Positions 1,125 to 42,700 of a DNA stretch of 64,000 nt are shown here, piece after piece. The notes below the pieces were generated by a model. That model worked only from the letters and a program-made list of their open reading frames with translations. It did no database searches and had not been told where the DNA came from. Each line of letters starts with the position of its first letter. The first letter of the stretch is position 1. Origin of the DNA: Siphonodentalium dalli (taxonomy: Eukaryota > Mollusca > Scaphopoda > Gadilida > Siphonodentaliidae); the NCBI GenBank assembly GCA_032622095.1, contig CP136067.1, positions 54,413,899-54,477,898 of the forward strand, read 5' to 3'. A program made the translations under genes and the position numbers.

Positions 1125-1787
1125 AACAAATGCCAGTCCACATAGAAGGGAGGGAGGAGTTACCACAGCACATGGCTGATCTGGTGTCTCGAAAAATCCT
1201 CGAGAAATTTGGCGAGCTCACTGAAGACTTTACATCGAATCTAGCGAAGCGGAAAGTGTTAGCTGGTGTCGTCATGACAACAGGTCTAGAATCCGAAGAT
1301 GCTGACGTCATCTGTGTTACCACAGGAACCAAATGCATCAATGGCGAGTACATCAACACCCAAGGTTTTGCACTGAATGATTGTCACGCCGAAATTGTTT
1401 CCCGACGATGCCTTGTACGATTTCTTTATCACAAACTTCTTGATCACATATTCCGAGGTGGCACTGATGCAGCTTCTATTTTTGAGAAATGTGAAATCGA
1501 GGACAAATATCAAGTTAAGGAGAATATAAAATTCCATCTGTACATCAGTACCGCTCCCTGTGGCGACTGCAGGATTTTCTCCCCACACGAGACCGAAATC
1601 TCAGACCGACATCCAAATCGCAAGACTAGAGGTCAGCTGAGAACGAAGATAGAATCTGGGGAAGGGACGATTCCGGTGAAGAATGGTAGTACGATCCAGA
1701 CATGGGACGGTGTGCTGCAAGGGGAGCGACTCCTAACAATGTCTTGCAGTGATAAGATCGCTAAATGGAACACCATGGGTTGCCAAG
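1125..1787 (+). CDS. ADAR2-like (ADARB1): ADAR2-like RNA adenosine deaminase, penultimate coding exon (N-terminal two thirds of deaminase domain)
   Basis: The exon encodes the first ~220 residues of an adenosine deaminase acting on double-stranded RNA, a nuclear enzyme converting adenosine to inosine. Numbered from the in-frame ATG at 1130, the HAE motif (H86, E88) holds the first zinc ligand and the proton-shuttling glutamate. The PCGDC motif (C144) and SCSDK motif (C206) supply the other zinc ligands. GEGTIP contains E178, matching the base-flipping Glu488 of human ADAR2. The run LPQ..AD.VSR...KFG.LT at the start and NGEY..ALNDCHAE are close to vertebrate ADAR2, closer than to ADAR1. The exon opens after a polypyrimidine-ag acceptor at 1123-1124, so ATG 1130 is internal and not the true start. 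It ends at CCAAG|gtaag, leaving one base (phase 1) that joins the exon at 17522. dsRNA-binding exons are expected upstream. The reading past 1787 is intron. Confidence 0.95.
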
Positions 1788-1804
1788 GTAAGATTCTCAT
1801 CCAT

Positions 1805-2204
1805 TTAACCCTTTACCCAACAAACCGGCCAAAACCGGCCAAATAAAGCTTCAACAGCCTAAAATATCTTCGGTCTGTCTCAATAGAACCATACAAATAT
1901 GGATATCATTGGAACCGGCTCCTTGACCACATTGTGATAGTTACAGTTATGCCCTGTGCCAATGCATTCTCTTATATATGCGAGTCGACCATAGGTCGCC
2001 TCGCATATATAAGAGAATGCATTGGCCTAAACAAAATCTTTTTTTAACACTTTTTACCATTTTTTCTTACATTCTTTAACAATTTTATAATTTGTAATGT
2101 GTTAAGCCAATGCATTCTCTTATATATGCGAGGCGACCTATGGTCGACTCGCATATATAAGAGAATGCATTGGCACAGGGCCCTTCTGTTGGGTAAAGGG
2201 TTAA
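1805..2204. mobile_element. TTAA-flanked palindromic MITE with two 69-bp hairpins
   Basis: Inverted ends ttaaccctttacccaac and gttgggtaaagggttaa bound a 400-bp element with TTAA at both edges, the target preference of piggyBac-type transposons. Inside are two near-perfect 69-bp hairpins at 1958-2026 and 2106-2174 that are also inverted relative to each other. No transposase is present, so this is a non-autonomous copy. It starts only about 18 bp after the ADAR exon's splice donor. Confidence 0.8.
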
Positions 2205-3014
2205 GATTGGAGATAGTGTCCCAAATTTACCATTTTACTTGTAGTTGTTATTCTTGGAACACATATATTCTGACGAGGCCTGTTCTGTTGTTAGTGTCCT
2301 TGAACTAAACGCTGAATTTTCACAAATGTCCAATCGATAAGGAAATTTCAATTTTAATCTTCTGAAGTTGAAATTTCAGTCTAAAGTCAGATCTTAATTC
2401 TCATAATTTGTCTAGGAAATTTGCATTAAATTTCAAGAAAATTTTGAGTACCAAATAAACTTTATTGAAAAAAAAGAAAAGAAGAGAATTCACAAAATCT
2501 ATAAAGGACATCCATACATTTTCATTATATCTGCTCTATTTTGCATGCATTCAAGTAATGCCCTGTTTCAATACGACTTTGCCTTTATAATTAGTTGCTC
2601 CGAACTTCTGACTATCTTTCCTGATCTTGTCAGTTGACCAGGCTTGTCAGGGCTCATTCAAGCGGAAAGCTTTGTTCAGTTCAGTTTATTAGGCTCACAG
2701 AGAGTCTATTAAACTTTGTGTTTTCAGCTTCTCCCCAGTTACTGGTGTGGGTTATAGATGATCGTCTATTATGATATTTCCAGCTTCAGTGCAACACTGA
2801 CTTGTGATCGTGACATTCAAATATAATTATTTTGAAACACCGAAACCAATTTTCACATTTGTGTGATTCTGTTGTCAAGAATAAACTTGTGCATGACTGA
2901 CGTATGTTGGTGCCACCCAAGTCTGAGTTTAGTCTGCTAGCATCACCAAATTCACCCTCTGGGGACCGCATCTGCTATGGGATGTATACCTAGACTCAGT
3001 TTGAAGTTCCCAAA
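2205..3014. other. ADAR intron, mostly unique AT-rich sequence
   Basis: No exon is seen. A single arm of the foldback family described at 3957 occurs at about 2930-2975, followed by the companion segment that also appears near 49750-49870. Confidence 0.4.
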
Positions 3015-3789
3015 TACCTTACTCGTATTTAAATTCACGCAGGACTATTTTTCGCTCAGTTTTGAATTCGCGCACTTTTAATTCACGCACCTTGATGCGC
3101 GAATTCAAAACTGACAAAACTATTTTCGTAAAATGTTTGGATTTGATGACAGTTTCAGATCTTAATCGTTAATGAAGATACGTGTGCATATTAAACAGCA
3201 TCATTGGTGGCTTTACACCGTGTATAATTTAACATAACTGCATCATCAATGTCTTGTGAAGACGGGTGTTTATACCCTCCAAATAATTCTTCTGATACTG
3301 AAATAGTTATAAACATAATTTAAATGAAATCTAAAGACATAAAATCAACAACCGCGTATTGAAAAACTTACATCAGAAAAAGTATAAACTTGGTGACATA
3401 ACACTCCAGACTGTTTGGTCACGGTGTAGTGCCAGCATTGTTGGGGGGGGCGTGCGTCTTCAGTCTGTATTTCTTACAAGTATTTCAACATCAATGATGT
3501 TGCCATGATTTGTTGCTATATAGTTATGTCATTATACATATCAGTAATGGTTTTGATGTTGGTTGCCCGCATGTAAATTCTAGTCATAGTAGGCTAGTAG
3601 CCTAATATTTGGTCCAACCTTCCGTAATGTGAATACATTTATTACATAACTCATCAACATAATAATAACCATATTGTTTCCTGCTGGTTTGGTATAAACT
3701 CAGGTGTCGTACTATTTTTCACTCAGTTTTAAATTCGCGGACTGGTGCGTGAAAATTAGTACTGCGCGAATTTAAATACGAGTAAGGTA
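3015..3789. mobile_element. TIR element, family with actcgtatttaaattc ends (copy 1)
   Basis: The left end reads taccttactcgtatttaaat and the right end is its reverse complement with few changes. Subterminal 'tactatttttcactcag' and 'gcgaattcaaaactga' segments are also inverted. A second copy in the opposite orientation lies at 60858-61519 and fragments at 23678-23880. There is no coding capacity, so it is a non-autonomous DNA element. Confidence 0.7.
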
Positions 3790-3956
3790 GTGAATATTGT
3801 GATGTACACCCATTGGGAACCTTGATTGTGCAATATGTCTTCTACCAATTTGGGGATATAGAGAATCTAAACTATAAAAGAAATAGAATCAATGTGAAGA
3901 AGTTTCTATAGAAATTTGATGATAAAGAAACTTTCCCAGAGAAGATGAGGCTTAAG

Positions 3957-4058
3957 CAGAAAGGTCCCCAGAGGGTGAATTTAGTGATGCTAGCTTGCTA
4001 TGTGGGATAGAGTCACTAAATTCTCCCTCTAGGGACCTCATTCTGCAAATTACAGACA
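3957..4058. repeat. Foldback hairpin, 'gaggtccccagagggtgaat' family
   Basis: Inverted arms 'ccccagagggtgaatttag' and its complement flank a short centre around gctagc. Related hairpins or arms occur at 2930, 30336-30365, 30470-30562, 30764-30872, 49640-49745 and 49946-50070, so this is a dispersed family. Remaining sequence from 3789 to 5061 shows no other recognisable feature. Confidence 0.7.
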
Positions 4059-5061
4059 TACTATAATCAGACTCTCAGCAGATCCTTTTCTCTCATTGGT
4101 TCTCTATGACACAAAAAATGTCATTAATTTCTCAATTTGTTGATGTTATCACAGAAATATCATAATGGCCGATCAATGTACCGAGGGAAACAAATCATTA
4201 GATGTCTGAGCTATTTCTTTTGGATTATTTTCGTGGTTTACCAAGATAAGTGTGAAAATATGCATATTTTGGCCGATCCGCTGTAACTCGCTCTTCAGAT
4301 ATAACACACACCGGTTACCAGGGGTGAGCTTGTGTGACTCGATTGGGCTCTTTTGGCATGTTGTATTTTCCGCTTGGTTCACCATCCTGGCCCAGTCTTA
4401 TTGCATCTTATTACTCTTTAACAGTTCACAAAACAAACATTCATTTCTTAAGTAATTACTATGACAAATTGGTGTCATTAGAATTTTTTTGTTGAATACG
4501 TCATGCCATCCTTTAATTGTACATATGTCAGACAATGGTGTCAATGTTTATACACATTAATTCCATGAGTTCACTAGGTTCTCTCTTATGGAGCATGAAC
4601 GTTATTTCAACCCTCAAATTTATTAAATGTGAAAAGGCCATCAAAGTGTCAACTTGAGAAAATTAAGGGCATTTTTTGTAACAACATCATTTAGCCCTAC
4701 CAGCATCATAGAAATTCAGCAGGAACCACCAATATCATAACCGCTTAACCAGGGGTTTCACTCTAAATGGAGAAGGAACTAATCTAAAACCCTTTATGCA
4801 TCTGAAGGCGAGACCTCTCAGCTGCCTTCCACAGTTTGTGGCCCAGTGATCAGTGGATTCAGTGCACATTCTTCTGGTATGACAGCTTTACTGCTTCGAC
4901 CTCATTAGTCGACTTCCTCTCTCAATACACCATGAAATAACCGCAGCCAAATGCATAATCAATGCATTTGGTGCATGTTCATTAAAACCAGATAATTGAG
5001 CTGTTCAAACCGCTCACCAAGGTTTTCTTTCTTCATAACATTTACTTACCTTCACTGACTG

Positions 5062-5268
5062 TTAACTCTTTCTGAACTAAATGGATTATCCCACCCACTT
5101 ATAACAATATATATTGGAATGGTCTATTGTTAATTTGGAGGTGTGTTCAGGATATATAAGTAGACGGCAGACAGAAAAATATTCAGACCTATTGAACTTA
5201 TTATCTGAACATTTCCTAAGAGAACTACTCATCAATGAGTATTTAATAGTAAAGAAAGGGTTATTATA
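5062..5268. mobile_element. TTAA element, family B (copy 1)
   Basis: Begins ttaactctttctgaactaaa and ends with the inverted aaagaaagggtta. The internal text 'attggaatggtctattgtta' and 'actcatcaatgagtattta' is shared with copies near 7038, 18176, 19112, 47130, 49067, 50138, 51690 and 52750. It is a short non-autonomous element. Unique AT-rich sequence without exons follows to 6078. Confidence 0.7.
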
Positions 5269-6078
5269 TGCCTGAATATTGTTTGTAAATATAGATTTAA
5301 GATGCATAATCTCATTAAGCACCCCTCAATATCTATTTATTTGTATTCGGGGGTAAAAAATATTTCTTTCGAGTCGAGGAACCAACCTATACAGCACATA
5401 GTTATTCGATATCGATTTTTGAAATCTATTATTTTTCACCATCAAGACTTAATAGTGGCCCAGTAAAAAATCGATGAGCTGATGGTCTCAAACCAAATAG
5501 CGGATGAAGATGGATAACTCCAAAATCAAGAGACTTTGTGTTGATAATAAGGCCAAAGTTTTTTGACCGACATGTTGATAAATAACACGTTTTGTGCAAT
5601 GATATACTATAGTTGACAGTGGTTAGCATTATATTTGGTCAATTAATCGATTCTGACAACTTAAGCGGCATTTCTAAAAATGTTGTTGTTGTTGTTGGAA
5701 TCTGATAATATGGGGACCATCGAATCGGATTGAGCACCGTTAACAATATTTTATGGACCTATCTCAGCTTTTAAAAATAGTGACGTTTAATTAATTCTCG
5801 CAAATAAATGGAATCGACTCACTCATTTATGTGGTATCTTATGATAATATGCAAGGCATATAGAACGACCCCCATGTGATGTTAAGAGGAAGAACCTTGC
5901 GAATGATCTGTAGTCATAAACCTATTTAGACCTTCTGCATGGTAATAACTCGAATGTTTTCAGATTGATCTTGTAGACCTTTTGTATCATATGTGAGTAG
6001 ATTTCGATATACACGTACCTATGGTTTATAGACATCGACCTTTGATAATATATAGGCCTTTATATTAAATGCATTGAA

Positions 6079-6350
6079 TTAACCAACCCTTCCATGAGTG
6101 GAGCTTCCTGAAATTTTACGAAAACCCTGTGCCAAAGCATTCTCTTATAGAAGAGTCTACCTTAGGGAGCCTCGCATATATAAGAGAACACATTGGCCTA
6201 ACCTAACAATATTTATCTTGACCTAGTAGTAATCCAGTGCATTCTCTTACATATGCGAGGCTCCCTATGGGGGACTCGCATCTACAAGAGAATGCTTGGC
6301 ACATGATCTTTAATGCTGCACCAGCGCAGTTCTCATCATGAAAGGGTTAA
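6079..6350. mobile_element. TTAA MITE with hairpin cassettes, family A
   Basis: Left end resembles cccttccatgagtggagc and right end catgaaagggttaa. The interior holds two degenerate copies of the cattctcttatatatgcgag hairpin. This is a member of the commonest element family in the window. Confidence 0.75.
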
Positions 6351-6690
6351 ATTAATTGAATTAAGCATGCATACATCAGACTGATAAAGGCACATCGATG
6401 AGAAGAATCTTGAATAGAAAGGAGGGTTGTTTATGAAAAAACCAGGAAAATAGATTAATCCAGGTTTCTAGAAGCAGATATCGTGAATCATGATGCAGTG
6501 ATTGCAATGTAATGTTGATGGCAAATATCACCTCTGCAATGCAAAATGATTCATTGCTGGCGTATTGAGAATTGGCAAAATAATGTTTCTGGCTTCTTTC
6601 AACGAAAATCAATATGAATTTGAGGACAGTGATTAATAGTTGTGTCATACCAAATTTCATTGTTATAATATTTTTTGGCAGTGTGAAAAT

Positions 6691-6962
6691 TCTTTTAGCT
6701 CTTTTTAATGGGATCTGCACTGGTGCAGCATTAAAGATCCTATGCCAGTGCATTCTCTTAAATATGTGAGTCTCCCACAGGGAGCATCGCATATATAAGA
6801 GAATGCACTGGCTTACAAGGTTGTGGTAAATATTGTTAGGCCAATGCATTCTCTTATATATACGAAGTTATCTATACAATGTACGAAACTCGCATATATA
6901 CGAGGATACATTGGTACATGGTTTTCCCAAAATTTCAGCAAGCTCCAGTCATGGAAGAGTTA
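6691..6962. mobile_element. TTAA MITE with hairpin cassettes, family A
   Basis: Carries the diagnostic 'ctggtgcagcattaaagatc' subterminal segment, two hairpins (about 6733-6813 and 6839-6915) and the 'agctccagtcatgga' right end. The ends are eroded relative to other copies. Confidence 0.7.
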
Positions 6963-7037
6963 AATGAATCAGTCAGTTAGAAAATATATTCCAGTCACGG
7001 AATGGTTCAGCGATGTATAATCCTCAAGTTTCAAATT

Positions 7038-7610
7038 AATCCTTTATTTACTATTTAATATGGATTCTCCCATTCAGTTATGAAAGTATACATTGGAATG
7101 GTCTATTATTCATCTGGAGGGGTGTTAATGAAAAATAAGAAACGGCAGATAATACGAGAGCAGAAAGGATTCCTACTCATTGGTGGGAAATGTTCAGATA
7201 ATAAATTCAACATAATAGCCTATGGTATTTGTGGAACTAATTTTCACAACATGTATAATTTTGTCCGAGCTTTTATTCCTACATTTTTAGGTCAATTTTT
7301 TAAAAACTTAGCACATATATTTAGTACCATGGGAATCTGTGCACCTGTGATTATGACGGCTGTCCGACATTTTTTGGTGGAGTTATCCCCCCTTTTTCGA
7401 CTTAGAACTTTTATTCCTAAATATTTCGGTCAATACCGGTAGGTTTAAGATTAGGGTTAGGGTTGTGCACCTGCAATGGGAACTGTTATTTTATTTTATT
7501 ATTTTAACTAAATGTTTACTGACATGTGAAACATCTTAGTATTTAAAAAACACGGGGGGGGGGGGGTATCCTTAGTCCCCATTGGGACAGTTACACCTCT
7601 AGTTTTCTGA
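7038..7610. repeat. Partial family B element followed by a dispersed mollusc-type repeat
   Basis: Positions 7038-7215 match family B ('ggaatggtctattattcatc', 'aaatgttcagataataaatt'). From about 7255 the text 'gcttttattcctacattttt' through a G-homopolymer to about 7606 is shared with 10440-10760. The open frame across this junction has no recognisable protein domain. From 7611 to 8341 nothing recognisable was found. Confidence 0.6.
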
Positions 7611-8341
7611 TCATTTAGTAAAGAGAGGATAAATCAGTGTGTTATGCTTCTATTTATCAATACAATGAAGTGATCTTCATCTCCACATCAAGTCCCCCCA
7701 CCCACTGACTCAAACAACCTTAGCTCAGAAAAAGTTAATTTCTCGCCTGTTCATGTGTATATTATTAAAAAACCAAATAAGCAATAAAATCAGAAGATTA
7801 TTTTTTGTCCTCTGAGACATCACACATAGAAATAACTCAGATCATTGAATTGGAAGTGAGTTCAGAGTGTGTCCTTCAGTGCAGAATGAGGCGTATGGGA
7901 ATGTCGAGATATCATGTCTAGACTAATCAGCATACAAATCTATTTCTTCTAGGCGTACAGCCAATCTGCAATTCAAATTCAAGGGGACGCTATGAGGCTA
8001 CACCCAACATTTGGATCATGCAAAACTAGATTTATGAGTCTAATTATTATAATTATCTGTAAATTATTATCCTACCGAGTGACCTGGTACATGTCTGTAG
8101 ATTGTAATTAACTTTGGTTTGACAACACACCTTTCAAAAGACGTTTATGTGACATCTCTGCGATTTTTGACATTGTAAAAGGACACTGGTGGCCCGTTGG
8201 TTTATACAGCACCGTGTACTCGATCATTGTAAACTGTCCTGTATGGGAGTGATGTTCTAATCATTGCTGAATTCATTCACATCTTGATCTCCATGGATAT
8301 AGCCAGCCTCTCTCTAGCTGCTAACATAATTCTTGTGATCA

Positions 8342-8724
8342 TCATTCCTGAAATTTTGCAAAAACCATGTGCCAATTCATTTTGTTATAAATGCGAGTCT
8401 CCCATATCTTATATAGGCATATATAAGATAATACAGTAGGTTAATACTATTTACATCAATTGGCCTTGTAAGCCAGTGCATTCTCTTATACAGAAATGTC
8501 CTAAATAATCGACTTCTTAACCACAGCAGAATTATGGGTAATTTTTCAGGATTTAGTCAACTAAATCCTGAACAAATTTCCCATAATTCTGCTGTGGTTA
8601 AGGAGTGGATTATTTAAGGCATTGCTGTAGGTGCGAGGCTCCCTATGGGAGACTAACATATATAAGATAATGCACTGGATCTTTAATAGTGCACCAGCGC
8701 AGCTCCTTTCTTGAAGGGGTGTTA
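8342..8724. mobile_element. Family A MITE interrupted by a nested TA-flanked foldback
   Basis: Outer left part ('cctgaaattttgcaaaaacc') and right part ('gcaccagcgcagctcc', 'cttgaagggg') are family A. The second hairpin is split by the foldback at 8491-8627, which has TA on both sides. Confidence 0.7.
8491..8627. mobile_element. TA-flanked foldback element, family C (nested)
   Basis: A 137-bp palindrome with ends cagaaatgtcct and its approximate complement, flanked by TA dinucleotides as expected of Tc1/mariner-type integration. The arms include 'accacagcagaattatgggt' and its complement. Sister copies lie at 20974-21182 and 21968-22188. It sits inside a family A hairpin, so it inserted later. 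Confidence 0.8.
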
Positions 8725-9373
8725 AAGGGGTACTGTACCCCAATTTCAATAAATTCCCAGTGACAATAGCGACCTAATATGAATATTATATTATAAAATA
8801 ACTAATTTGAGTCGACTATGTCTACTGAAAACATTCCGGTTAACAGGCTATCGTAAAAGTAAAATTGAATTATTTAATATAAATTCATTTATGGCTGGAG
8901 TCATAAAATGGAGAATTATGCCATTACGAGTTATCGTTCTTGAAATCGCATATGTTGCGTGTCTTTTATCGACGGCCATTCGCGAACATTATTGAGTTGC
9001 AAACAAAACATGTTACCTGCAAAAGAAGGCCCGTTATAACCGGTTCGGGAAAAAAGGAGAAAGAAACAAGAGTCATAAAGCGTCAAGTATTTTATAGGGA
9101 GTGAGATTGTTCGATGGAAGAGATTTAATGCATCAATCGAAGCTGTGAGCAATGAACTTCCGGTTCTTCCTGCGACCTGCGTCTTCTCCGGTGAAGGTCA
9201 AAAACAAGGCGCGTAGTTTGAAATCGTAATATTTTTGTTTCCAAGATCAATATTTTCTTCGCTAAATTAGGTTTATACGAAACTCATATAACACGAACAC
9301 AATCTAACTTGAAAGTTATTTCAATTGGAGTAAATAAAAAAATTGCCTATCTTAGTGTACAGTACCCCTTTAA
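8722..9373. mobile_element. TTAA element with aggggtactgtac ends (copy 1)
   Basis: Ends ttaaaggggtactgtacc and gtacagtacccctttaa form terminal inverted repeats with TTAA edges. A shorter relative is at 57787-58306 sharing 'ggttaacaggctatcgtaaa' and 'tgcgtcttctccggtgaagg' text. Open frames inside are shared between copies only in broken form, so no gene is called. From 9374 to 9880 nothing recognisable was seen. Confidence 0.8.
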
Positions 9374-9879
9374 TATTAAAGTATATCTATAGAATAGATC
9401 ATTCCAGTGTATTATTTTTAGAATTGTCCGAGAAGCCATTCAGAGGGTTAAGTCCAATATCATCAGCTCTGGTACTAAAAGAATTAACTTTTTATCACTG
9501 TGCATAAAATACATGTAGTCTCAATTATAGACTCAATAGAAATCTATGCTTAATGCTTTATGGTTTACCATGTGTCTTTATTAAAGCCAGATCACTCGAT
9601 CTTTATGTGACAGTTGCTTCAATTTCTGAAATTGGAAGAGGACCCCAATGGCCCTTTCCTTACAGAAAAGCATGTGCTCTATCACCATAACCTGTCCAAT
9701 ACAAAGTCTGCCCTGGAATATTGCTGGAATAAACATAATTAGAAAGCTATGGTGAAAGGCATGTAGAGAGTTCCGACACATTTTATAAGCCCGTTTTTAA
9801 AACAGGATGTATTTATTTTTCTCCAACCAACTGTCTCTGCCCATCCGTCTGTCCCTTAATATTTTGTTTCCGGATGATA

Positions 9880-10330
9880 GCTTTTAATAGTTCTACTGAA
9901 CTAAATGGAATGAAATATGTTATGTTCACTACCACAAAAATGGGTCAAGTTAATTTTTGTTGGAATATGGTCTGGCAGCCCATTTTTACCAGCGTTCCCG
10001 ACCATTTTTGAAATTTTCGTTTCTGGATTATAACTTTAGTTAATATATATGGTATGCAGGTTTATAGTTCTACTGAACTAAATGGAATGAAATATGTTAT
10101 GTTCACTACCACAAAAATGGGTCAAGTTCGATTTTGTTGGACTAGGGTCTGGCAGCCCGTTTTTACAGCGTTGCCAAACATTTTTGAAATTTTCGTTTCT
10201 GGATCATAACTTGAGTTAATATATATGGTATGCAGGTTTACAGCCATACAATACGTATCAAGTTCAATTTTGGGTTCCGTCCGCCCATTTTTACCGGAGT
10301 TAAGGACCTTTTTCGACTTGAAATTCAGGT
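9880..10330. repeat. Imperfect tandem repeat, ~177-bp period
   Basis: The text 'ttctactgaactaaatggaa' starts at 9891 and again at 10068. The segment 'gttaatatatatggtatgca' and the flanking 'cattttt' blocks repeat a third time in part to about 10330. There is no coding signal. Confidence 0.7.
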
Positions 10331-10439
10331 TTTCTTGTTTCACCATATCATTCACACAATTAGACTATCAGGATAGAAAAAATTCACTGTAATTACAATG
10401 GACTCATTGTATCCTCTGTACTAGTCTGTAGTGAGTTAT

Positions 10440-10790
10440 GGTGGGGGGGGGGTATACAGGTGTCGGCTTGTCTGTCCGTCTGTAGATGCACTTTTATTCC
10501 TTCATTTTCAGCCAATTTATTTTAAAACTTGGCACAGATACCTGTGCACCTGCGATTATGAGATATGTCTGACTTTTTAGGTGGAGTTATCCCCCTCCCC
10601 CCACCCCCTTAGCGAGTTATGGAGGGGGGGTATATAGGAATCAGCTTGTCCATCCGTCTATCCATAGACGCGACTTTGTCCAAGCTTTTATTCCTACATT
10701 TATCGGTCAATTGTTTTTAAACTTGGCACAGATATTTAGTACCATGGGAAATCTAAAGAGGGAAATTCATGAATATCTCATGTTTAATTT
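10440..10790. repeat. Dispersed repeat, 'tccgtctgtc' / 'cttttattcctac' type
   Basis: Two partial copies, each starting after a G-rich tract and carrying 'gtcggcttgtctgtccgtct' or 'atcagcttgtccatccgtct' and 'aaacttggcacagatattta'. This repeat is shared with 7255-7606. From 10791 to 11530 nothing recognisable was found. Confidence 0.6.
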
Positions 10791-11529
10791 TCTTCGGACA
10801 ATAATGGACTTTATTTTAATGACTGATTTCAATTGATCTTTCCGCCCACATTTATGCAAATATTAATACATTTGGAAGTTGCAAAGTTTATTGTAGGCTC
10901 ATACGAAGCCAGTTCTTTTCAATTTTCGTGTCAATCTGAACAATATACATGTGGGCAGAGTATTTTGTCATGAGGACACGCATCCTTCTTGGTAAGCTTG
11001 AAATAAACCAGTTATGCCGAAACCAAGAATTCTCATTGGCCTGTCTGGCTTCCGTACATTTACGAGCAACATGAGAACCATCCATAGTCTGCAGACTCAT
11101 TGTTGCCTAAAGTTAATGGTGCTACCAATTTTCTGAAGCAACTAACAACAGAAATGTGTTCTTTCTGGAGAAGCCCAAATTATTTCTCAATTAGGTTAGA
11201 GCTACAGATAAGTGATACTGCCTTTGAAGGAAATGCTTTCAGAGGGACGCGAGTAATTTATGGTTCTCTGTAGTAAATGGTCCTCTACATTCACCGTACT
11301 AATAACTGTCATCACGGTCTACAATGCAAGTGATTAATTTTGCCGATTGGAGTATATTTACTGCTACATGACAAATTTTGTCAGAAGACGTGGCACAGCT
11401 CTCTTGTGAGGGGACTTGGCAAACAAAAATATTACTCCTGGAAGCAATTCAAATAGATTTGTTTCCGTTCTATTCACACGCTCTCACTCGTCTAAGGAGT
11501 CTGGTACAATTAGACTCGGACAATCTTGA

Positions 11530-13930
11530 CTAGAGGCCTGCGGTCTTCGATTTTGTTTTAATCAATGATTCTAATCCACTTTATTTGGAAAGCTTTTCAA
11601 TGGCTTTATTTGGCTGACACTTACTCGACTGACTGCAACAGTTTTGTCAGTTTAAATTTTTGAATTGAACCCTAATATTGTACGATGTCACCCCATGGCT
11701 GTCTAAATTACAACTTTTATGACACTCATACAGGAACCAATCTAGTACAGTTTCATGCAGACAGAAACCAGTTTAGAACGCAGACTTAGTCCAGTGCAGT
11801 TTCATGACCCTCATGCTGACTGAAGCCAGTCTAGAATGCAGCCTGGGAGTTGGACACTCTTGCAGGCAGGGACCAGTCTTTTAAGTGCAGTTTCATGACC
11901 CTCAAGCTTGCAGAATTAAGCCTTTGATTTAGTTGTAATGATTCTAATCCACTTTATTTTGAAAGCATTTCAATGGCATTATTTCGTTGACACCAGAGCT
12001 GTTAAGTTTCACGGATTATCTGTGAGACTTCTGGATTGCCATAGCGAAAACATCTAAAATACAGATAATCACCCATTTCTCCTGCATGTGACAACGTGGC
12101 TAATTAGTAGGCCATGCATGTCAACAGATAAAATGAGTACACGCATCGGCCACTAATCCCTTTTTCACAGTTTGGGCATCCCTTAATATATTAATTGTTC
12201 TGAGACAGTTCAAGCATTTGTCAAAACAAACATGCATCTACTTGATTATCCCCCGCCAAATTTAAAATTTGCGGGGGATATAGTAATGGGTTCCGTCCGT
12301 CCGTCTGTCCATTTGTCCCGAATTTGTAAGAGTCATAACTTGAACAAATGTAAATGGATTTCAAAGATTTGTGGTATATGAGTTCACCTGACCATTACAT
12401 AGAATGAGTTCGCAAGCCAGGTCTGGCCAGATATTATTACCGGAGTTATTGGACTTTGTTTATTATTTTTGTCGAATTTACCAAATAGCAAATAGACGAC
12501 GTCACAGGGCTCATTTTCACAAATCTCAACGGATTTAAAAGATATTTGGTATATGAGTTCACCTGACCATTACCTAGAATGAGTTTGCAAGCCAGGTCCG
12601 GCCAGATATTTTTATCGGAGTTATTGGACTTTGGTAATTTCGACAAAAATAATAAACAAATAGACGTCACAGGGCTCATTTCCACAAATGTCAACGGATT
12701 TCAAAGATTTTTGGTACATGAGTTCACATGACCAGTATCTAGAACGAGTTCGCAAACCAGGTCCGGCCAGATATTTTCAGCAGAGTTATTGGACTTTGGA
12801 CAACTGTTTATTTTTTTGTGTGCAAATGGATGACGTCACAGGGCTAATTTCCACGAATGTCAACGGATTTAAAAGATTTTTGGTATATTCGTTCCCATGA
12901 CCAGTACCTAAAATGAGTTCGCAAGCCAGGCTTTTTGACAAAATCCCACCTCTTGTTTAGCACATACTGAGAACGCAAACATTTTATTGAGAATGCACTT
13001 CCCCAACTGCACAATTCGGCGGGGGATACCGCCGTCTGCGACTGCTTGTTTCAATACATGTAGACACATAATACACAGCTGTTAAATAACCGCTAAGTCA
13101 CAAAGCATGCCAACGGAATGTGTCAATTTTATTTGCGGGTAAACTGTAAGATGGGTCAATTTTGTACTTTCGGTTTCACACATGTCCGGTTGTAACCTGT
13201 GTATTACTATGGTTCGTTTTTACTTTTTTTAAATTTGTTTTAAGTTACTGCTTCTTAAAAAATGGTGACATTTCATTTGGGGTTTAAACTGTAAGACGAG
13301 TCCATTTTATAGTTTATTCCGATTTGTACTTTCGGTTTCGCACAAATCCAGCCGTACCCAGAGGAATTATGAGTATTTTATCTCAGTTTAAACGAAGTGC
13401 CTGCTTCTTTCTCTTTAATAAATGGTGGACCGTGGTGGTCTCTCAACACAGGTGGAATTTGTGTTTTGAGCCGAAAATTAGGTGGTCGTGGTCGCGTTTA
13501 ACAGGTGATCACCCATTGAAGGTGATATATAGAATGAACCAGTCAGTGAACAGGAAATTGGAGGTGGTTCCTCCTGCAAAACTCCCGGATGGCTATTTTC
13601 AAAACATTAACCGGTCTGGCTGACACGCACTCCACTGACTGCAACAGTTTTATCTGTTTCGATAATTAATTGAAACCTGTTATTTTAAAATGTCCCCTGC
13701 TGGCTGTCTGAAGTACACCTTTATGACACTCATGCAGACAGGGACCAGTTTCAAACTTTCATGACCCTCATGCTGGCAGAACCCAGTCTAGAGAACGGCC
13801 TGGGAGTATGACACCCGTGCAACCACGAACCAGTCTAGTACAGTTTCATGACCCTCGTGCATGAAGAAACATTAAGTACTAATGCACTATAAATTTAACC
13901 CACCTCAGACATTGAAACTTAATCTGATTT
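11530..13930. repeat. Two copies of an uncharacterised intronic repeat around a gcgggggata-type element
   Basis: The segments at about 11610-11900 and 13600-13865 share 'ctgactgcaacagtttt', 'cagtttcatgaccctcatgc' and 'gcctgggagt'. They flank the element at 12247-13051. A further pair of imperfect repeats with 'aaactgtaagatgggtc' / 'tttgtactttcggtttc' occurs at 13120-13340. No exon is supported here, and 13931-14674 also shows nothing recognisable. Confidence 0.45.
12247..13051. repeat. gcgggggata-type mollusc repeat with ~170-bp internal tandem copies
   Basis: Starts with the small palindrome cccccgccaaatttaaaatt...gcgggggata and ends with gcgggggataccgccgtctg. Four internal units share 'tggtatatgagttcacctga' and 'gagttcgcaagccaggtc' at about 12359, 12533, 12698 and 12868. 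Similar elements are common in marine mollusc genomes (from memory). Probably non-coding. Confidence 0.65.
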
Positions 13931-14674
13931 AGTTGATAATCATACCACCAAGTTTATGCTGCTATGTAATATTGTACAAATTCTGTAGGTTCACATTTTC
14001 TGTTGGAGAGGTAAAACTATTGGTATAATATTGGGCTACTTGTGTAACTCCTTCTCTGTACATCTCCATTCTCTCTTCCTCACACATCTGCTTCTGCCAC
14101 AGGTCTGATAGCTGAAATGGGACGCAGCCAGTCACATGACATCTAGTCGACACCAAGGAGGGAATTGTTTAATGACTCAAAACGCAAAAAAGCATCTCGG
14201 CTAATCTCGGGTTTTCATTTCTGTGAAATTGATTTTTCTGGCAATCTGAAACCAGATCAGAGGAAATTCATGAGGGAATTTTTCGATAATGTCTCAGACT
14301 TTACAATTTAATTTACAAATGTGAAATATGTGTTTGTGTCGGCTGTCTTGTATTGCGGCTTGAAGTGCCAATTGAGAAAGTTCTATACCACCAGCTCTAA
14401 ATGTTTTGCGGAGTATCTAAGCAAATCAAATTTTTTTTCAATTCTCATAGCGATTAGATGTCTTGTGTTCAGCCTTTTTAGTATGACAGCGACAGTAAGT
14501 TCTTCCAACAGCTTCCCTCATGATTGATTGATGAAGTTTTTTATGAATAAATGAGAAACGAAGACATTGTAATGAATGTATGGATTTCAGCCAATGCCAG
14601 CTCTGGGATCTTGGCAAACTGGGACGCTTCACTAACTGGGACCTCACACTGACTGGGACCTCACACTGACTTAA

Positions 14675-15066
14675 TTTTGGGGTCATTCGGCCAAAAAACA
14701 TGGTCGCCAGCAGCCATCTTGGATTTTACTCTTTGTATGACTAAATTCTTTAGCACGGGCTATATGTCATACCTTTAGTCTGATCATCATAAAATTTGTC
14801 ATGAATGTTATTGATGACATTTAGATGGGAACGAGTCATTTTGGGGACATTCGGCCAAAAAACATGGCCGCCAGCAGCCATCTTGGATTTTACTCTTTGT
14901 ATGACTAAATTCTTTAGCATGGGCTACAGGTCGTACCTTTAGTCTGATCGTCATAAAATTTGTCATGGATGTTAACAATGACATGTAGATGGGAACGACT
15001 CATTTTGGGGTCATTCGGCCGAAAACATGACCGCCAGCAGCCATCTTGGATTTTACTTTTCTCTTC
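14675..15066. repeat. Tandem repeat, 164-bp period, three copies
   Basis: The text 'attcggccaaaaaacatgg' begins at 14685, 14849 and 15013 (the last with small changes), followed each time by 'ccagcagccatcttggattt'. The exact 164-bp spacing shows a direct tandem array. It is intronic with no coding signal. From 15067 to 15749 nothing recognisable was found. Confidence 0.85.
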
Positions 15067-15749
15067 ATGTCTATAAACTAGTATTAGACATTCAACTTTC
15101 CACATTCCTAATTGCTCCATTGACTGTAATACATTAAATTATTCCCTTTCCAAGTTGAGCTACAGTATCATTGACACTTTCATTGATTTCAGTAATGTCT
15201 ATATTTTGATAAAATACTATAAGAAACGCTGTGTTTCACACATATACATATATATAGGAATCAGGGAGCTAAATGTGTTCTAGAGTCGGGGAGCGAGTAC
15301 TCCGTGGAGCTAAAGGTGAAGGTAACTGAAGAATGACCTTCACCTGATACATGCGACACTTTATTAAAGGATGACATCGCGTTTATTTGATTTGTACATA
15401 ATATCTAAATAATTTAAACTGGTGAATGAATGGGGGAATGGATTTTTGTAAGCGGGAAATTTATTTAACTAGCTGCTGTAGTCCTGGGTTTTTCCAGATC
15501 AAATTTGGCTGTGAGATAGCCCTGTCGTAGACTTGGGGATTTATTTTAAAAAGTAAACACATGACCTATGATTTTTCTTGCATTTTCGTGATCAACTGAT
15601 GTCAATCTAGCGGCGTAAACATCACTGGTATGGCCTGCAGGCTTCAATTCAGTGAATTTGGCCGAAAAGTTAACACTGTCGCCTATGGGAAACAATTTAG
15701 TTCAGTGATTCCTACAGTGTCATTGACACTTTCATTTCTCATGCCTTGA

Positions 15750-15986
15750 CCCTTTCATGACGGGAGCTGCGGGAAAGTGCATTCTCTTGTATATGCGAAT
15801 CTCCCATAGGGAGCCTTGCATATATAAGAGAATGCACGGGCTTACAAGATCAAGGTAAAATATTGTTAGGCCAATGCATTCTCTTATATATGCGAGGTGC
15901 CTTATGGGCAACTCGCATATATAAGAGAATGCATTGGCACAGGGTTTTCACAAAAAATCAGGAAGCTCCAGTCATGAAAGGGTTAA
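15750..15986. mobile_element. TTAA MITE with two hairpin cassettes, family A (well preserved)
   Basis: Inverted ends ccctttcatgacgggagc and gctccagtcatgaaaggg flank two hairpins at about 15775-15840 and 15871-15939. The arms are strongly conserved, while the inner stem-loop differs between the two. The right edge is TTAA; the left edge has tgac instead, so that side is mutated. From 15987 to 17030 no exon is seen. Confidence 0.8.
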
Positions 15987-17030
15987 TCATCAGGGACATA
16001 TCCAGGCCGTTTTTCATACCGTTTACCGGTTTGGGCGCCCAAACTCCAGGCACCCAAAAAAAAAGTAGATTTTACCAACTTTTTTTTTTTTTTAAATTAA
16101 GCTCCCAATTCATATCATAGTTGGAATCATACTGTAGAGTATGTTGGTTTATCTAGCTTTCATCTGTGAAAACTTCAAATAGTTTGAGTTCAGGTTTGTT
16201 ATCATTCAGACTTCAGTATTTCAATCAAATTAAAGTGAAATTACACAATACAGTACAGGAACAGTGACAATTTGATCATATCAACATGGTTATCAGGTGG
16301 GATCTCATAATACCAAATGAATAATTAACATGGAGTAATTACTAACTTAATAGACATCATTTCTGTACTACTAGTATATTATGTACCGGTTTGTGTCTCA
16401 CACTTGAATTTTAGAAAATAGCCTATTATATGAATTAGAGTGATAACGGTTTCATTTCAAGCAGGATAAGCATAATCCATTGAATCAAAAGATATCTGAC
16501 AATAACTTGTAAGCATTTCCAATCCATACATATATAAAAATTTCCAAAGTTCCGCTTGAGAAACTTGATCAAATTGACCTCTCAGTAAAATTCAATATAC
16601 TGAATCCGAGAGCCCCAGATTAGCTCTCAATGCATTGGATTTTCAAAAAATTTCCAGGGGAACAACCCCCAGACCCCCCCACCATCAACTGGGGGATACC
16701 CCCCTCCCGAACCTCCCTTGCTCAAGTGTTCGGGATATTGCCCAAAAACAGGTGTCCCCAAAAAATCGCTGGACCCTTCACTGATCATCAAATTACATTT
16801 CAATGACCCATTAATCAGTCTATTTTTTATCAAATTTGACAATCTAAATCAACTTGTAATATATAAGATTGGATACTGCTTCAATATCTGGAACTGTCCT
16901 AAGTGCCCTTGGCTATTTATGTTCGGAAGAATAAAATATAAGAAATAAAATCACCCTCCCACCCCATTTTTTTTTTTAAGTTGGTTGTAAATATAGCAAT
17001 TTATTTAGCCTTTAATATGTGTAACAGGAT

Positions 17031-17594
17031 CTGGCTGTTGATTTCATACTTACATTCGTTCATTTCCAGGTTCCCTGCTCAGCTATTTCATGAAACCAGT
17101 CTATCTGGATAGCATCATTCTGGGCAGTCTTTACAATGGGGAGCTGGCTGTTGATTTCATACTTACATTTGTTCATTTCCAGGTTCCCTGCTCGGCTATT
17201 TCATGAAACCAGTCTATCTGGATAGCATCATTCTGGGCAGTCTTTACAATGGGGAGCTGGCTGTTGATTTCATACTTACATTTGTTCATTTCCAGGTTCC
17301 CTGCTCGGCTATTTCATGAAACCAGTCTATCTGGATAGCATCATTCTGGGCAGTCTTTACAATGGGGAGCTGGCTGTTGATTTCATACTTACATTTGTTC
17401 ATTTCCAGGTTCCCTGCTCGGCTATTTCATGAAACCAGTCTATCTGGATAGCATCATTCTGGGCAGTCTTTACAATGGGGAGCTGGCTGTTGATTTCATA
17501 CTTACATTTGTTCATTTCCAGGTTCCCTGCTCAGCTATTTCATGAAACCAGTCTATCTGGATAGCATCATTCTGGGCAGTCTTTACAATGGGGA
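17031..17594 (+). repeat. Five-copy 113-bp tandem array containing the ADAR splice acceptor and exon start
   Basis: Units start at 17031, 17144, 17257, 17370 and 17483. Each has 'ctggctgttgatttcatact', a pyrimidine tract, tttccag and the first 73 or so bases of the last ADAR exon. No good donor lies inside a unit, so the copies give five alternative acceptors rather than repeated exons. Only the last is followed by the full exon. Units 2-4 read ctcggc where units 1 and 5 read ctcagc. Unit length is not a multiple of three. Confidence 0.95.
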
Positions 17595-18039
17595 GCACCT
17601 AGCGAGAGGAGTATACGGACGCTACAGCCAGGCAGAAGACATCCAACAACCATACCGACTCAACCAGCCATACCTTAGCAGCATAAGCAACCCAGAGAGC
17701 CGGCAACCAGGCAAAGCTCCTAACTTCAGCGTCAACTGGTGCATCATTGACAACACGATTGAAGTTATCAACACGATGACGGGCAAGACGGAAGTCGGCG
17801 AAACATCCAGGCTGTCGAAGCACGCCATGTTCAGATTGTTTAACAATCTCTATGACATGGCTGTAACAACAAACCATCCCGATAGTCTCGCACCCAAGCT
17901 GTACTCGGAAGCTAAAATCGGCGCTTTGGAGTACCAGTCTACCAAAGATAACCTATATAAGGCATTCCAGACCCTTAATTTAGGGGCATGGGTCAAGAAA
18001 CCAGCCGAGCAGGACCAGTTTGAGTTGAGCAGTAACTGA
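17522..18039 (+). CDS. ADAR2-like (ADARB1): ADAR2-like RNA adenosine deaminase, last coding exon (C-terminal part of deaminase domain)
   Basis: Continues the deaminase domain of the exon at 1125-1787. The leftover G plus GT makes the glycine of GCQ-GSLLS, and reading stays open to the TAA at 18037-18039, adding about 171 residues. Motifs conserved with ADAR2 include ILGSLY..EHL, NPESRQPGKAPNFSVNW, EVIN..TGK, SRLSKHA and the terminal LGAWVKKPAEQDQFEL, a region that in human ADAR2 helps bind inositol hexakisphosphate inside the domain. The total domain length (~390 residues) is normal for the family. The acceptor at 17520-17521 is the last of five tandem copies; using any earlier one gives a premature TGA. 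The ATG at 17542 is internal, not a start. AATAAA candidates downstream are distant (for example 18996), so the 3' end is unresolved. Confidence 0.95.
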
Positions 18040-18735: not shown

Positions 18736-19111
18736 TTATGACCAATTGGAAAACATTAAAGTTAGTGTATCTCTTCCTAACATCATTTATAAGGTTTCCT
18801 GGGTATAAAATAATCGAAGAAGCCTGTCCAGAAATTGTTCTATCAATTAATAATTTATTTATTTAGATTTTTTTCCTGGTATGATACATTGAGCATACCA
18901 AGATGAAGAACTCTATCTTGTTAGCACCATCAATTAAGGCAAATTTCATTTGAATTAACAGATTTCATCTTGAAATACGTTTTGCTTCCATCAGAAATAA
19001 ACCACATTGTTGTTCCTTTATAGACAAATAAATATACACAATCTTCAATTTGATCTGTATTTTATTCACAAAAAGCTAATGATGTTGTAATTGTGACCCA
19101 GAAGAGATATA

Positions 19112-39797: not shown

Positions 39798-42700
39798 TGC
39801 ATGCGTGAACCTTGATTTAGAGAGTATAGCATCTGACATGCGTGAACCTTGATTTAGAGAGTATAGCATCATGCGTGAACCTTGATTTAGAGAGTATAGC
39901 ATCTGACATGCGTGAACCTTGATTTAGAGAGTATAGCATCTGACATGCGTGAACCTTGATTTAGAGAGTATAGCATCTGACATGCGTGAACCTTGATTTA
40001 GAGAGTATAGCATCTGACATGCGTGAACCTTGATTTAGAGAGTATAGCATCTGACATGCGTGAACCTTGATTTAGAGAGTATAGCATCATGCGTGAACCT
40101 TGATTTAGAGAGTATAGCATCTGACATGCGTGAACCTTGATTTAGAGAGTATAGCATCTGACATGCGTGAACCTTGATTTAGAGAGTATAGCATCTGACA
40201 TGCGTGAACCTTGATTTAGAGAGTATAGCATCTGACATGCGTGAACCTTGATTTAGAGAGTATAGCATCTGACATGCGTGAACCTTGATTTAGAGAGTAT
40301 AGCATCTGACATGCGTGAACCTTGATTTAGAGAGTATAGCATCTGACATGCGTGAACCTTGATTTAGAGAGTATAGCATCTGACATGCGTGAACCTTGAT
40401 TTAGAGAGTATAGCATCTGACATGCGTGAACCTTGATTTAGAGAGTATAGCATCTGACATGCGTGAACCTTGATTTAGAGAGTATAGCATCTGACATGCG
40501 TGAACCTTGATTTAGAGAGTATAGCATCTGACATGCGTGAACCTTGATTTAGAGAGTATAGCATCATGCGTGAACCTTGATTTAGAGAGTATAGCATCTG
40601 ACATGCGTGAACCTTGATTTAGAGAGTATAGCATCTGACATGCGTGAACCTTGATTTAGAGAGTATAGCATCATGCGTGAACCTTGATTTAGAGAGTATA
40701 GCATCATGCGTGAACCTTGATTTAGAGAGTATAGCATCTGACATGCGTGAACCTTGATTTAGAGAGTATAGCATCATGCGTGAACCTTGATTTAGAGAGT
40801 ATAGCATCATGCGTGAACCTTGATTTAGAGAGTATAGCATCATGCGTGAACCTTGATTTAGAGAGTATAGCATCATGCGTGAACCTTGATTTAGAGAGTA
40901 TAGCATCATGCGTGAACCTTGATTTAGAGAGTATAGCATCTGACATGCGTGAACCTTGATTTAGAGAGTATAGCATCTGACATGCGTGAACCTTGATTTA
41001 GAGAGTATAGCATCATGCGTGAACCTTGATTTAGAGAGTATAGCATCATGCGTGAACCTTGATTTAGAGAGTATAGCATCTGACATGCGTGAACCTTGAT
41101 TTAGAGAGTATAGCATCATGCGTGAACCTTGATTTAGAGAGTATAGCATCATGCGTGAACCTTGATTTAGAGAGTATAGCATCATGCGTGAACCTTGATT
41201 TAGAGAGTATAGCATCATACGTGAACCTTGATTTAGAGAGTATAGCATCATGCGTGAACCTTGATTTAGAGAGTATAGCATCATGCGTGAACCTTGATTT
41301 AGAGAGTATAGCATCATGCGTGAACCTTGATTTAGAGAGTATAGCATCTGACATGCGTGAACCTTGATTTAGAGAGTATAGCATCTGACATGCGTGAACC
41401 TTGATTTAGAGAGTATAGCATCATGCGTGAACCTTGATTTAGAGAGTATAGCATCTGACATGCGTGAACCTTGATTTAGAGAGTATAGCATCTGACATGC
41501 GTGAACCTTGATTTAGAGAGTATAGCATCTGACATGCGTGAACCTTGATTTAGAGAGTATAGCATCTGACATGCGTGAACCTTGATTTAGAGAGTATAGC
41601 ATCTGACATGCGTGAACCTTGATTTAGAGAGTATAGCATCATGCGTGAACCTTGATTTAGAGAGTATAGCATCTGACATGCGTGAACCTTGATTTAGAGA
41701 GTATAGCATCTGACATGCGTGAACCTTGATTTAGAGAGTATAGCATCTGACATGCGTGAACCTTGATTTAGAGAGTATAGCATCTGACATGCGTGAACCT
41801 TGATTTAGAGAGTATAGCATCTGACATGCGTGAACCTTGATTTAGAGAGTATAGCATCTGACATGCGTGAACCTTGATTTAGAGAGTATAGCATCTGACA
41901 TGCGTGAACCTTGATTTAGAGAGTATAGCATCTGACATGCGTGAACCTTGATTTAGAGAGTATAGCATCATTCGTGAACCTTGATTTAGAGAGTATAGCA
42001 TCTGACATGCGTGAACCTTGATTTAGAGAGTATAGCATCTGACATGCGTGAACCTTGATTTAGAGAGTATAGCATCTGACATGCGTGAACCTTGATTTAG
42101 AGAGTATAGCATCTGACATGCGTGAACCTTGATTTAGAGAGTATAGCATCTGACATGCGTGAACCTTGATTTAGAGAGTATAGCATCTGACATGCGTGAA
42201 CCTTGATTTAGAGAGTATAGCATCTGACATGCGTGAACCTTGATTTAGAGAGTATAGCATCTGACATGCGTGAACCTTGATTTAGAGAGTATAGCATCTG
42301 ACATGCGTGAACCTTGATTTAGAGAGTATAGCATCTGACATGCGTGAACCTTGATTTAGAGAGTATAGCATCTGACATGCGTGAACCTTGATTTAGAGAG
42401 TATAGCATCATGCGTGAACCTTGATTTAGAGAGTATAGCATCATGCGTGAACCTTGATTTAGAGAGTATAGCATCATGCGTGAACCTTGATTTAGAGAGT
42501 ATAGCATCATGCGTGAACCTTGATTTAGAGAGTATAGCATCATGCGTGAACCTTGATTTAGAGAGTATAGCATCTGACATGCGTGAACCTTGATTTAGAG
42601 AGTATAGCATCTGACATGCGTGAACCTTGATTTAGAGAGTATAGCATCATGCGTGAACCTTGATTTAGAGAGTATAGCATCATGCGTGAACCTTGATTTA

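What the first reader, a model, noticed from the sequence alone, without database searches (positions are those of the whole stretch)
17031..17594. Five tandem copies of the ADAR splice acceptor and exon start, each upstream copy leading to a premature stop
Seen: five 113-bp units, each containing the pyrimidine tract, ag acceptor and first ~73 bases of the last ADAR exon. Because 113 is not a multiple of three and no donor lies inside a unit, splicing to any of the first four acceptors shifts frame and meets TGA in the next unit, after about 43 codons of exon sequence. Only the fifth acceptor gives the full deaminase C-terminus. Inference: this could tune ADAR dosage through nonproductive splicing, in the way vertebrate ADAR2 controls itself by creating an acceptor through self-editing. 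It could also be a recent neutral duplication or an assembly artefact.
Basis: partly seen in the sequence, partly recalled or inferred. Interest (0 to 1): 0.8.

Follow-up and report, generated by a model that had tools for sequence, protein, structure and literature searches.

The report
Fivefold-repeated splice acceptor in ADAR2 gene
In one animal genome the start of the last exon of an RNA-editing enzyme gene, splice signal included, is repeated five times in a row, so four of the five possible splice choices would make a cut-short and probably dead enzyme; it looks like a young tandem duplication whose effect on the enzyme has still to be measured.

Summary
Five 113-bp units (17031-17595; 449 of 452 bases match at lag 113) each carry a branch-point-like CTTAC, a pyrimidine tract, CAG and the first 74 bases of the last exon. 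The gene is ADAR2-type (two dsRNA-binding domains, complete deaminase), one of four deaminase-domain loci found in a 2.2-Gb, 9-contig animal genome and the only one that looks ADAR2-type. Splicing from donor 1787 to any of acceptors 1-4 gives 24 native residues past the junction Gly, 20 foreign ones, then TGA, losing 147 C-terminal deaminase residues. Acceptor 5 gives the full enzyme. No GT in the array scores as a credible donor. Two corrections: the stops lie in the terminal coding exon, so exon-junction-dependent decay is not expected and the likely product is a truncated protein; and nothing found points to self-editing or evolved regulation. Tandem arrays are common in this genome, including a 98%-identical one in an intron of its ADAR1-like gene, so a young duplication that happens to straddle a splice site is the best reading. 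A close precedent exists (potato RdRp). Which acceptors are used is untested: no RNA or reads were available. Boldest open reading: a copy-number rheostat of ADAR2 dosage.

The parts
1125..1787 (+). Penultimate coding exon of the ADAR2-type gene (N-terminal half of the deaminase domain, HAE / PCG / SCSDK motifs, names recalled); donor AAG|GTAAGA after 1787
   Evidence: PF02137 profile 1-167, 214.5 bits; exon ends read by eye and script; aligned to human ADAR2 1ZY7
1788..17069 (+). Last coding-region intron (15.3 kb to the first acceptor)
   Evidence: between the donor and acceptor 1
17031..17143 (+). Unit 1: 39 nt intron end (CTTAC, tract, CAG) plus 74 nt exon start; acceptor at exon base 17070; 17057 C (private), 17081 A (shared with unit 5)
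17144..17256 (+). Unit 2; acceptor exon base 17183; carries the TGA (17204) met from acceptor 1
17257..17369 (+). Unit 3; acceptor exon base 17296; TGA 17317 met from acceptor 2
17370..17482 (+). Unit 4; acceptor exon base 17409; TGA 17430 met from acceptor 3
17483..17595 (+). Unit 5; acceptor exon base 17522, the only one that leads into the full C-terminus; TGA 17543 met from acceptor 4, out of frame for acceptor 5
17522..18039 (+). Last coding exon as used from acceptor 5, stop TGA 18037-18039 (C-terminal half of the deaminase domain)
   Evidence: PF02137 profile 159-329, 136 bits for the frame 17494-18036
18996..19032 (+). First AATAAA motifs downstream (18996, 19027; an ATTAAA lies at 18755), possible poly(A) signals
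   Evidence: motif scan only

Best explanation
A young (or recently homogenised) tandem duplication array of ordinary origin. One event duplicated 113 bp (39 nt of intron end plus 74 nt of exon start) across the last acceptor of the only ADAR2-type gene detected, with one base of junction microhomology. Slippage or unequal exchange then raised it to five copies, probably the middle three last. Each copy keeps a full set of readable acceptor signals, so the five sites are expected to compete. Use of any of sites 1-4 yields the same truncated protein (Ser or Gly at one place): 24 native residues, 20 foreign ones, stop, with 147 residues of the deaminase domain lost, which should be catalytically dead. 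Because the stop lies in the terminal coding exon the message would largely escape exon-junction-dependent decay. If the five sites were used equally, about one transcript in five would encode the full enzyme. No evolved function is needed; the array is probably neutral to mildly harmful and may vary in copy number. Shown: the sequence, frames, stops, lack of a scoring GT donor, single locus in the search, common arrays in the genome. Inferred: order of events, acceptor use, fate of message and protein, neutrality, polymorphism.
For: Array geometry and near identity. The A of CTTAC lies 18 nt before the exon and 14 of 18 bases at -20 to -3 are pyrimidines in all five units. Frames and stops. 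Tandem arrays of period 40 or more cover 8.2% of 16 arbitrarily placed 10-kb pieces (25 arrays, 13,148 of 160,000 bases); arrays of period 60 or more with at least 97% matches cover 0.5% (2 arrays, 798 bases). A 191-bp, 2.7-copy, 98% array lies in an intron of the ADAR1-like gene. Two more arrays of about 165 bp lie in this same ADAR2 intron at 12344-12930 and 14674-15057. No long inverted partner in the window and no unusual folding.
Against: No array with period 60 or more, at least 4 copies and at least 97% matches was seen in the 160-kb sample (0); the nearest is one of period 50, 4.1 copies, 97% (L016). So this array is at the extreme of its kind. A neutral array that diverted most transcripts of the only detected ADAR2 gene would be expected to meet purifying selection; its persistence at five copies is mildly puzzling unless the upstream sites are little used. 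No population, relative or RNA data were available, so neutrality rests on lack of contrary evidence.
Confidence: 0.55

Rival explanations
1. The array is inert: terminal-exon definition or an unseen element makes the spliceosome use only the fifth acceptor, and units 1-4 are just intron.
For: The gene looks intact: the deaminase region aligns nearly end to end with human ADAR2 and the last exon is open to a normal stop. A gene with a strongly diverting array would be expected to suffer.
Against: The signals that can be read (CTTAC, tract, CAG, first 74 exon bases) are the same or nearly so in all five units; nothing in the sequence marks unit 5 as stronger, except that the normal exon continues after it. 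Acceptors were not scored with a full model.
Confidence: 0.16
2. The copy number or copy content in the assembly is wrong, or this is a private haplotype; most chromosomes carry one unit or another number.
For: Units 2-4 are identical, so their number is not anchored by sequence differences. The sequencing type is unknown.
Against: Units 1 and 5 carry different letters at 17057/17509 and share A where units 2-4 have G, so at least three distinguishable units exist. 565 bp is short compared with long reads (general knowledge).
Confidence: 0.14
3. Dosage control: the array is kept by selection because it splits ADAR2 transcripts between full-length and dead forms, with copy number setting the ratio.
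For: Four of five acceptors converge on the same truncated product. Mammalian ADAR2 is controlled by an alternative acceptor that frameshifts it (passages of PMC2694175).
Against: No positive sign of selection was found. Units are too alike to show constraint; of the two variable positions in the unit one changes a Ser that human ADAR2 shares to Gly in units 2-4. Many arrays are seen in the genome sample without regard to genes. No relative could be examined.
Confidence: 0.07
4. Intron gain or resplicing: each unit has the proto-splice motif AG|GT at the acceptor, so after joining 1787 to 17070 the regenerated AAG|GTTCCC could act as donor and splice to the next acceptor, restoring the normal mRNA.
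For: CAG|GT is present in all five units. Tandem duplication of AGGT segments is a proposed route to new introns, and a proto-splice site AAGGTGCCC is listed for one Drosophila case (passages of PMC4974935 and PMC2891723).
Against: The regenerated donor scores -4.25 against 6.85 for the true donor; of all 3,439 GTs in the window the median is -5.03, the 90th percentile -0.36 and the 95th 1.03 (matrix recalled).
Confidence: 0.06

Closest known systems
Tandem duplication across the intron 1 / exon 2 boundary of a potato RNA-dependent RNA polymerase gene (PMC4974935; passages read)
   Same: A duplicated segment that spans intron end and exon start and carries branch site, tract, acceptor and exon start; young.
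   Different: Potato: a duplicate of the boundary in which a cryptic GTAAG donor made a new intron. Here: five copies, no GT that scores as a donor, terminal coding exon, so the copies would compete as acceptors instead of making introns.
Mammalian ADAR2 self-editing acceptor with 47-nt inclusion (PMC2694175; passages read)
   Same: Same enzyme type; an alternative acceptor frameshifts the message to an inactive truncated product.
   Different: There the acceptor is made by A-to-I editing of AA in an intron near the start of the coding region and gives negative feedback. Here the acceptors are genomic, at the last coding exon, with no known feedback and a stop in that exon.
[quoted passage not shown] passages read)
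   Same: AG|GT repeated in tandem with a 113-base period.
   Different: Here AG|GT comes from an acceptor, and its GT is a very poor donor by the recalled matrix.
Minisatellite or VNTR array (general knowledge)
   Same: Head-to-tail near-identical units in a genome where tandem arrays are common.
   Different: The unit happens to be a complete acceptor plus exon start of a conserved gene; polymorphism is unknown.

Membership tests
ADAR2-type adenosine deaminase gene | Complete A_deamin (PF02137) domain | tested here: met
   exons cover profile 1-167 and 159-329; the 392-aa spliced region matches human ADAR2 1ZY7 over query residues 3-390, 505 bits
ADAR2-type adenosine deaminase gene | Two upstream dsRNA-binding domains | tested here: met
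   PF00035 at C7:54409586-54409771 and 54410039-54410194, one open frame of 305 aa, about 5 kb upstream on the same strand; that they are spliced to the deaminase exons is inferred
ADAR2-type adenosine deaminase gene | ADAR2 rather than ADAR1: Arg at human position 455 (PMC6651903 passages) and closest to ADAR2 | tested here: met
   PCGDCR aligned with human PCGDAR (residue numbering recalled); 505 bits to human ADAR2 and 271 to the adenosine deaminase entry 9b83 (ADAR1, name recalled). The paper's table also lists one abalone ADAR2 with Ser there, so the residue is not absolute. No tree was built.
ADAR2-type adenosine deaminase gene | No Z-alpha domain | tested here: inconclusive
   PF02295 found nothing in the genome, but the tool warns that this does not show absence
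ADAR2 self-editing acceptor (mammals) | Acceptor created by editing AA to AI | tested here: not met
   All five acceptors are genomic CAG
ADAR2 self-editing acceptor (mammals) | dsRNA partner pairing with the acceptor region | tested here: not met
   In the window the longest exact reverse-complement match of a unit is 13 bases, and one 21-base match at 86% lies at 17993-18013; folding near that of shuffles. Gene parts outside the window were not examined for this.
ADAR2 self-editing acceptor (mammals) | Alternative acceptor gives a frameshifted inactive protein | tested here: met
   Reading frames; inactivity inferred from the loss of 147 deaminase residues
Intron gain by tandem duplication | Duplicated segment carries branch-site-like motif, tract, acceptor and AG|GT | tested here: met
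Intron gain by tandem duplication | A usable donor inside the duplicated segment | tested here: not met
   best GT donor score in the array -4.13, true donor 6.85 (recalled matrix)
Minisatellite / VNTR | Near-identical head-to-tail units | tested here: met
Minisatellite / VNTR | Copy number differs between individuals | not testable with these tools
   one assembly only; no relatives or reads held
Nonproductive splicing coupled to nonsense-mediated decay | Stop upstream of a later exon junction | tested here: not met
   all four stops lie in the exon that also holds the normal stop; a 3'UTR intron downstream was not excluded

The most novel reading that the evidence does not exclude
A splice-acceptor minisatellite acts as a copy-number rheostat: n identical acceptors in tandem, of which only the last is productive, set full-length ADAR2 near 1/n of transcripts and the truncated, RNA-binding but catalytically dead form near (n-1)/n, so that editing level changes by slippage mutation at one locus.
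Probability: 0.07. Interest if true: 0.78.

Novelty: new variant of a known kind. Interest (0 to 1): 0.42.

Why it matters
If the array is real in animals and the sites are used, it is a natural experiment in how a spliceosome chooses among five equal acceptors spaced 113 nt apart, and in whether the only detected ADAR2 gene of an animal can lose most of its output. If copy number tunes the output, it would be a simple mutable dial on RNA editing. If inert, it shows how an array can sit on a splice site without harm. RNA junction counts would decide between these.

Tried and rejected
Self-editing or structure-based control: no long inverted partner for the unit in the window (longest exact match 13 bases; one 21-base match at 86%, at 17993-18013), and folding energies of the unit (-24.7 against -23.4, sd 3.4, 100 shuffles) and array (-159.8 against -153.0, sd 6.9, 30 shuffles) lie within about one standard deviation of shuffles that keep base composition only. 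A near-perfect hairpin with 80-nt arms begins 164 bases after the donor (1951-2181; of 62 inverted pairs found there only the 25 longest were shown), but its family is found in 8 of 16 arbitrarily placed 10-kb pieces, so it is an ordinary dispersed element.

Paralogue or pseudogene: 13 exon matches at four deaminase-domain loci were found (C7:54.4, C7:36.38, C2:111.04 and C4:223.4 Mb; the search is exon by exon and its counts are lower bounds). Only this one looks ADAR2-type, and its deaminase exons are intact, so there is no sign that the array is in a dead copy beside an active one. The other three were named by inspection of parts only (ADAR1-like; ADAD-like; the C2 locus possibly ADAT1), no tree.

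Species: a paper with 2.23 Gb and nine chromosomes came up (scorpion Hadrurus arizonensis, PMC11126328, passages), but the genome has 7,137 overlapping matches to a six-fold TTAGGG pattern and 0 to a seven-fold TTAGG pattern, and the N50 worked out from the nine contig lengths is 264 Mb, not the paper's 280. Rejected; the species stays unknown, so relatives could not be compared.

Failed control: protein-kinase exons were fetched to see how often arrays touch conserved exons, but all 25 loci came from one near-identical cluster on C2 and were not used. The 25,123 bases of eight ADAR-family loci are too few for a rate (5 arrays of period 40 or more).

Literature: searches on ADAR with tandem duplication and splice acceptor (6 papers, by listing none relevant), duplicated acceptors (no papers), and minisatellite with acceptor (no papers) found no report of this array or of a five-acceptor terminal exon in the held library, which lacks most subscription journals. 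(3, 4, 2 and 8 papers listed) gave the four papers on splicing and ADAR of which I read passages. Classical duplicated-acceptor experiments are recalled only and not relied on.

Full report
OBSERVATION. Tandem Repeats Finder reports 17027-17596, period 113, 5.0 copies, 99% matches, no indels. Comparing the window with itself at lag 113 gives 449 matches in 452 bases from 17031, where the window median is 122; chance is not an option. The exact array is 17031-17595 with one extra matching base (C, 17596). Each unit is 39 nt of intron end plus 74 nt of exon start. Units 2, 3 and 4 are identical. Unit 5 has A where they have G (codon AGC, Ser, instead of GGC, Gly). Unit 1 has that A too, and C instead of T in the pyrimidine tract. 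The human protein aligned has Ser there, so A is probably ancestral.

GENE. The gene is ADAR2-type. Two dsRNA-binding domains lie in one open frame about 5 kb upstream on the same strand; the deaminase domain is split over exon 1125-1787 and exon 17522-18039. The spliced deaminase region matches human ADAR2 (1ZY7) over residues 3-390 with 505 bits, against 271 bits for the ADAR1 entry 9b83 (that 9b83 is ADAR1 is recalled), and keeps the Arg that PMC6651903 (passages) describes as conserved in ADAR2 and changed in ADAR1, although its table lists one abalone ADAR2 without it. Four deaminase-domain loci were found in the genome (13 exon matches); only this one looks ADAR2-type. PMC6651903 reports ADAR2 as single copy in most of the lophotrochozoans it studied (passages). 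The animal itself is unnamed: 2.23 Gb in nine contigs, with long TTAGGG repeats and no match to the TTAGG pattern.

FRAMES. Joining donor 1787 to each acceptor: sites 17070, 17183, 17296 and 17409 all give a 265-residue C-terminal stretch (counted from the first Gln of exon 1125) ending in ...SLYNGE-LAVDFILTFVHFQVPCSAIS, then TGA. Site 17522 gives 392 residues to the normal stop. The four short products are the same apart from Ser (site 1) or Gly (sites 2-4) at one place. They keep 245 native residues, including the zinc-site motifs (recalled: HAE, PCG, SCSDK), and lose the last 147, which in human ADAR2 hold much of the inositol hexakisphosphate pocket (recalled), so they should be dead. The stop is in the exon that also holds the normal stop, so unless an intron lies in the 3'UTR no exon junction follows it. 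The first AATAAA motifs downstream are at 18996 and 19027, with an ATTAAA at 18755.

ACCEPTORS AND DONORS. All five acceptors have a CTTAC whose A is 18 nt before the exon, and 14 of 18 pyrimidines at -20 to -3; they were not scored with a full acceptor model. Units 1 and 5 have a second AG about 13 nt into the exon (CTGCTCAG) which units 2-4 lack. With a donor matrix recalled from human frequencies the true donor scores 6.85; the best GT in the array is -4.13, and the junction regenerated after splicing to 17070 is -4.25, a little above the median (-5.03) and well below the 90th percentile (-0.36) of the 3,439 GTs scored in the window. So there is no exon with its own GT donor inside a unit, and little support for resplicing at AG|GT.

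BACKGROUND. In 16 arbitrarily placed 10-kb pieces of the genome, arrays of period 40 or more cover 13,148 of 160,000 bases (25 arrays); arrays of period 60 or more with at least 97% matches cover 798 bases (2 arrays); none of period 60 or more has both four copies and 97%, though one of period 50 does (4.1 copies, L016). An array of 191 bp x 2.7, 98%, begins about 100 bases after an exon of the ADAR1-like gene, and two arrays of about 165 bp lie in the same ADAR2 intron. If high-identity arrays fell on acceptors at their random rate of about 0.5%, a genome with of the order of 100,000 acceptors (assumed) would have hundreds of hits before selection. One in a noteworthy gene is therefore no surprise, though five copies of 113 bp is beyond what the sample showed. 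An attempted exon control failed.

STRUCTURE AND EDITING. In the window the unit has no inverted partner beyond 13 exact bases, or 21 bases at 86% (17993-18013), and neither unit nor array folds better than shuffles by more than about one standard deviation. A strong hairpin at 1951-2181 in the same intron belongs to a dispersed family present in 8 of 16 sampled pieces.

COMPARISON. The closest precedent that I saw is a tandem duplication across an intron-exon boundary in a potato gene, which carried branch site, tract, acceptor and exon start, and became a new intron through a cryptic GTAAG (PMC4974935, passages). Here no such donor was found, so the outcome differs: a ladder of competing acceptors before a terminal coding exon. 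Mammalian ADAR2 uses an edited acceptor near the start of its coding region to make a frameshifted inactive form (PMC2694175, passages). The outcome is alike; the mechanism is not.

VERDICT. Real in the assembly, correctly described, most likely a young tandem duplication in a genome where such arrays are common. It works, by inference, as four decoy acceptors that divert an unknown share of transcripts to a dead truncated ADAR2. Regulation by copy number is open but unsupported. RNA junction counts would settle it.

Noticed in passing
window 39800-45690: A 37-bp minisatellite of about 166 copies (96% matches) covering nearly 5.9 kb.
   Followed up: no
window 1951-2181: Hairpin with 80-nt arms (99% complementary), 164 bases after the ADAR2 donor, in the same intron; relatives in 8 of 16 sampled 10-kb pieces, so a dispersed element, but a natural candidate for ADAR binding.
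   Followed up: partly
L004 1920-2437 (C7:36.38 Mb): 191-bp, 2.7-copy, 98% tandem array in the intron about 100 bases after an exon of the ADAR1-like gene.
   Followed up: partly
G000 C2:149.83-150.60 Mb: Large cluster of near-identical protein-kinase domains in single open frames, many with the same score (229.6 bits) and often 2.4 or 2.9 kb apart; by my count of the rows about 96 of the 135 kinase matches listed lie there (which scored 134 of 984 candidates).
   Followed up: no
window 17031-17595, every unit: Each unit has ATACTTAC, which equals the start of U1 snRNA (recalled) and reads GTAAGTAT on the minus strand, a donor-like core repeated five times antisense. Probably just the branch-point motif.
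   Followed up: no
window 17081, 17194, 17307, 17420, 17533: The only coding difference between units is A (Ser, units 1 and 5) or G (Gly, units 2-4), an A/G difference inside an A-to-I editing enzyme gene; probably one ordinary transition.
   Followed up: no
window 12344-12930 and 14674-15057: Two further tandem arrays (periods 165 and 164) inside the same ADAR2 intron.
   Followed up: no
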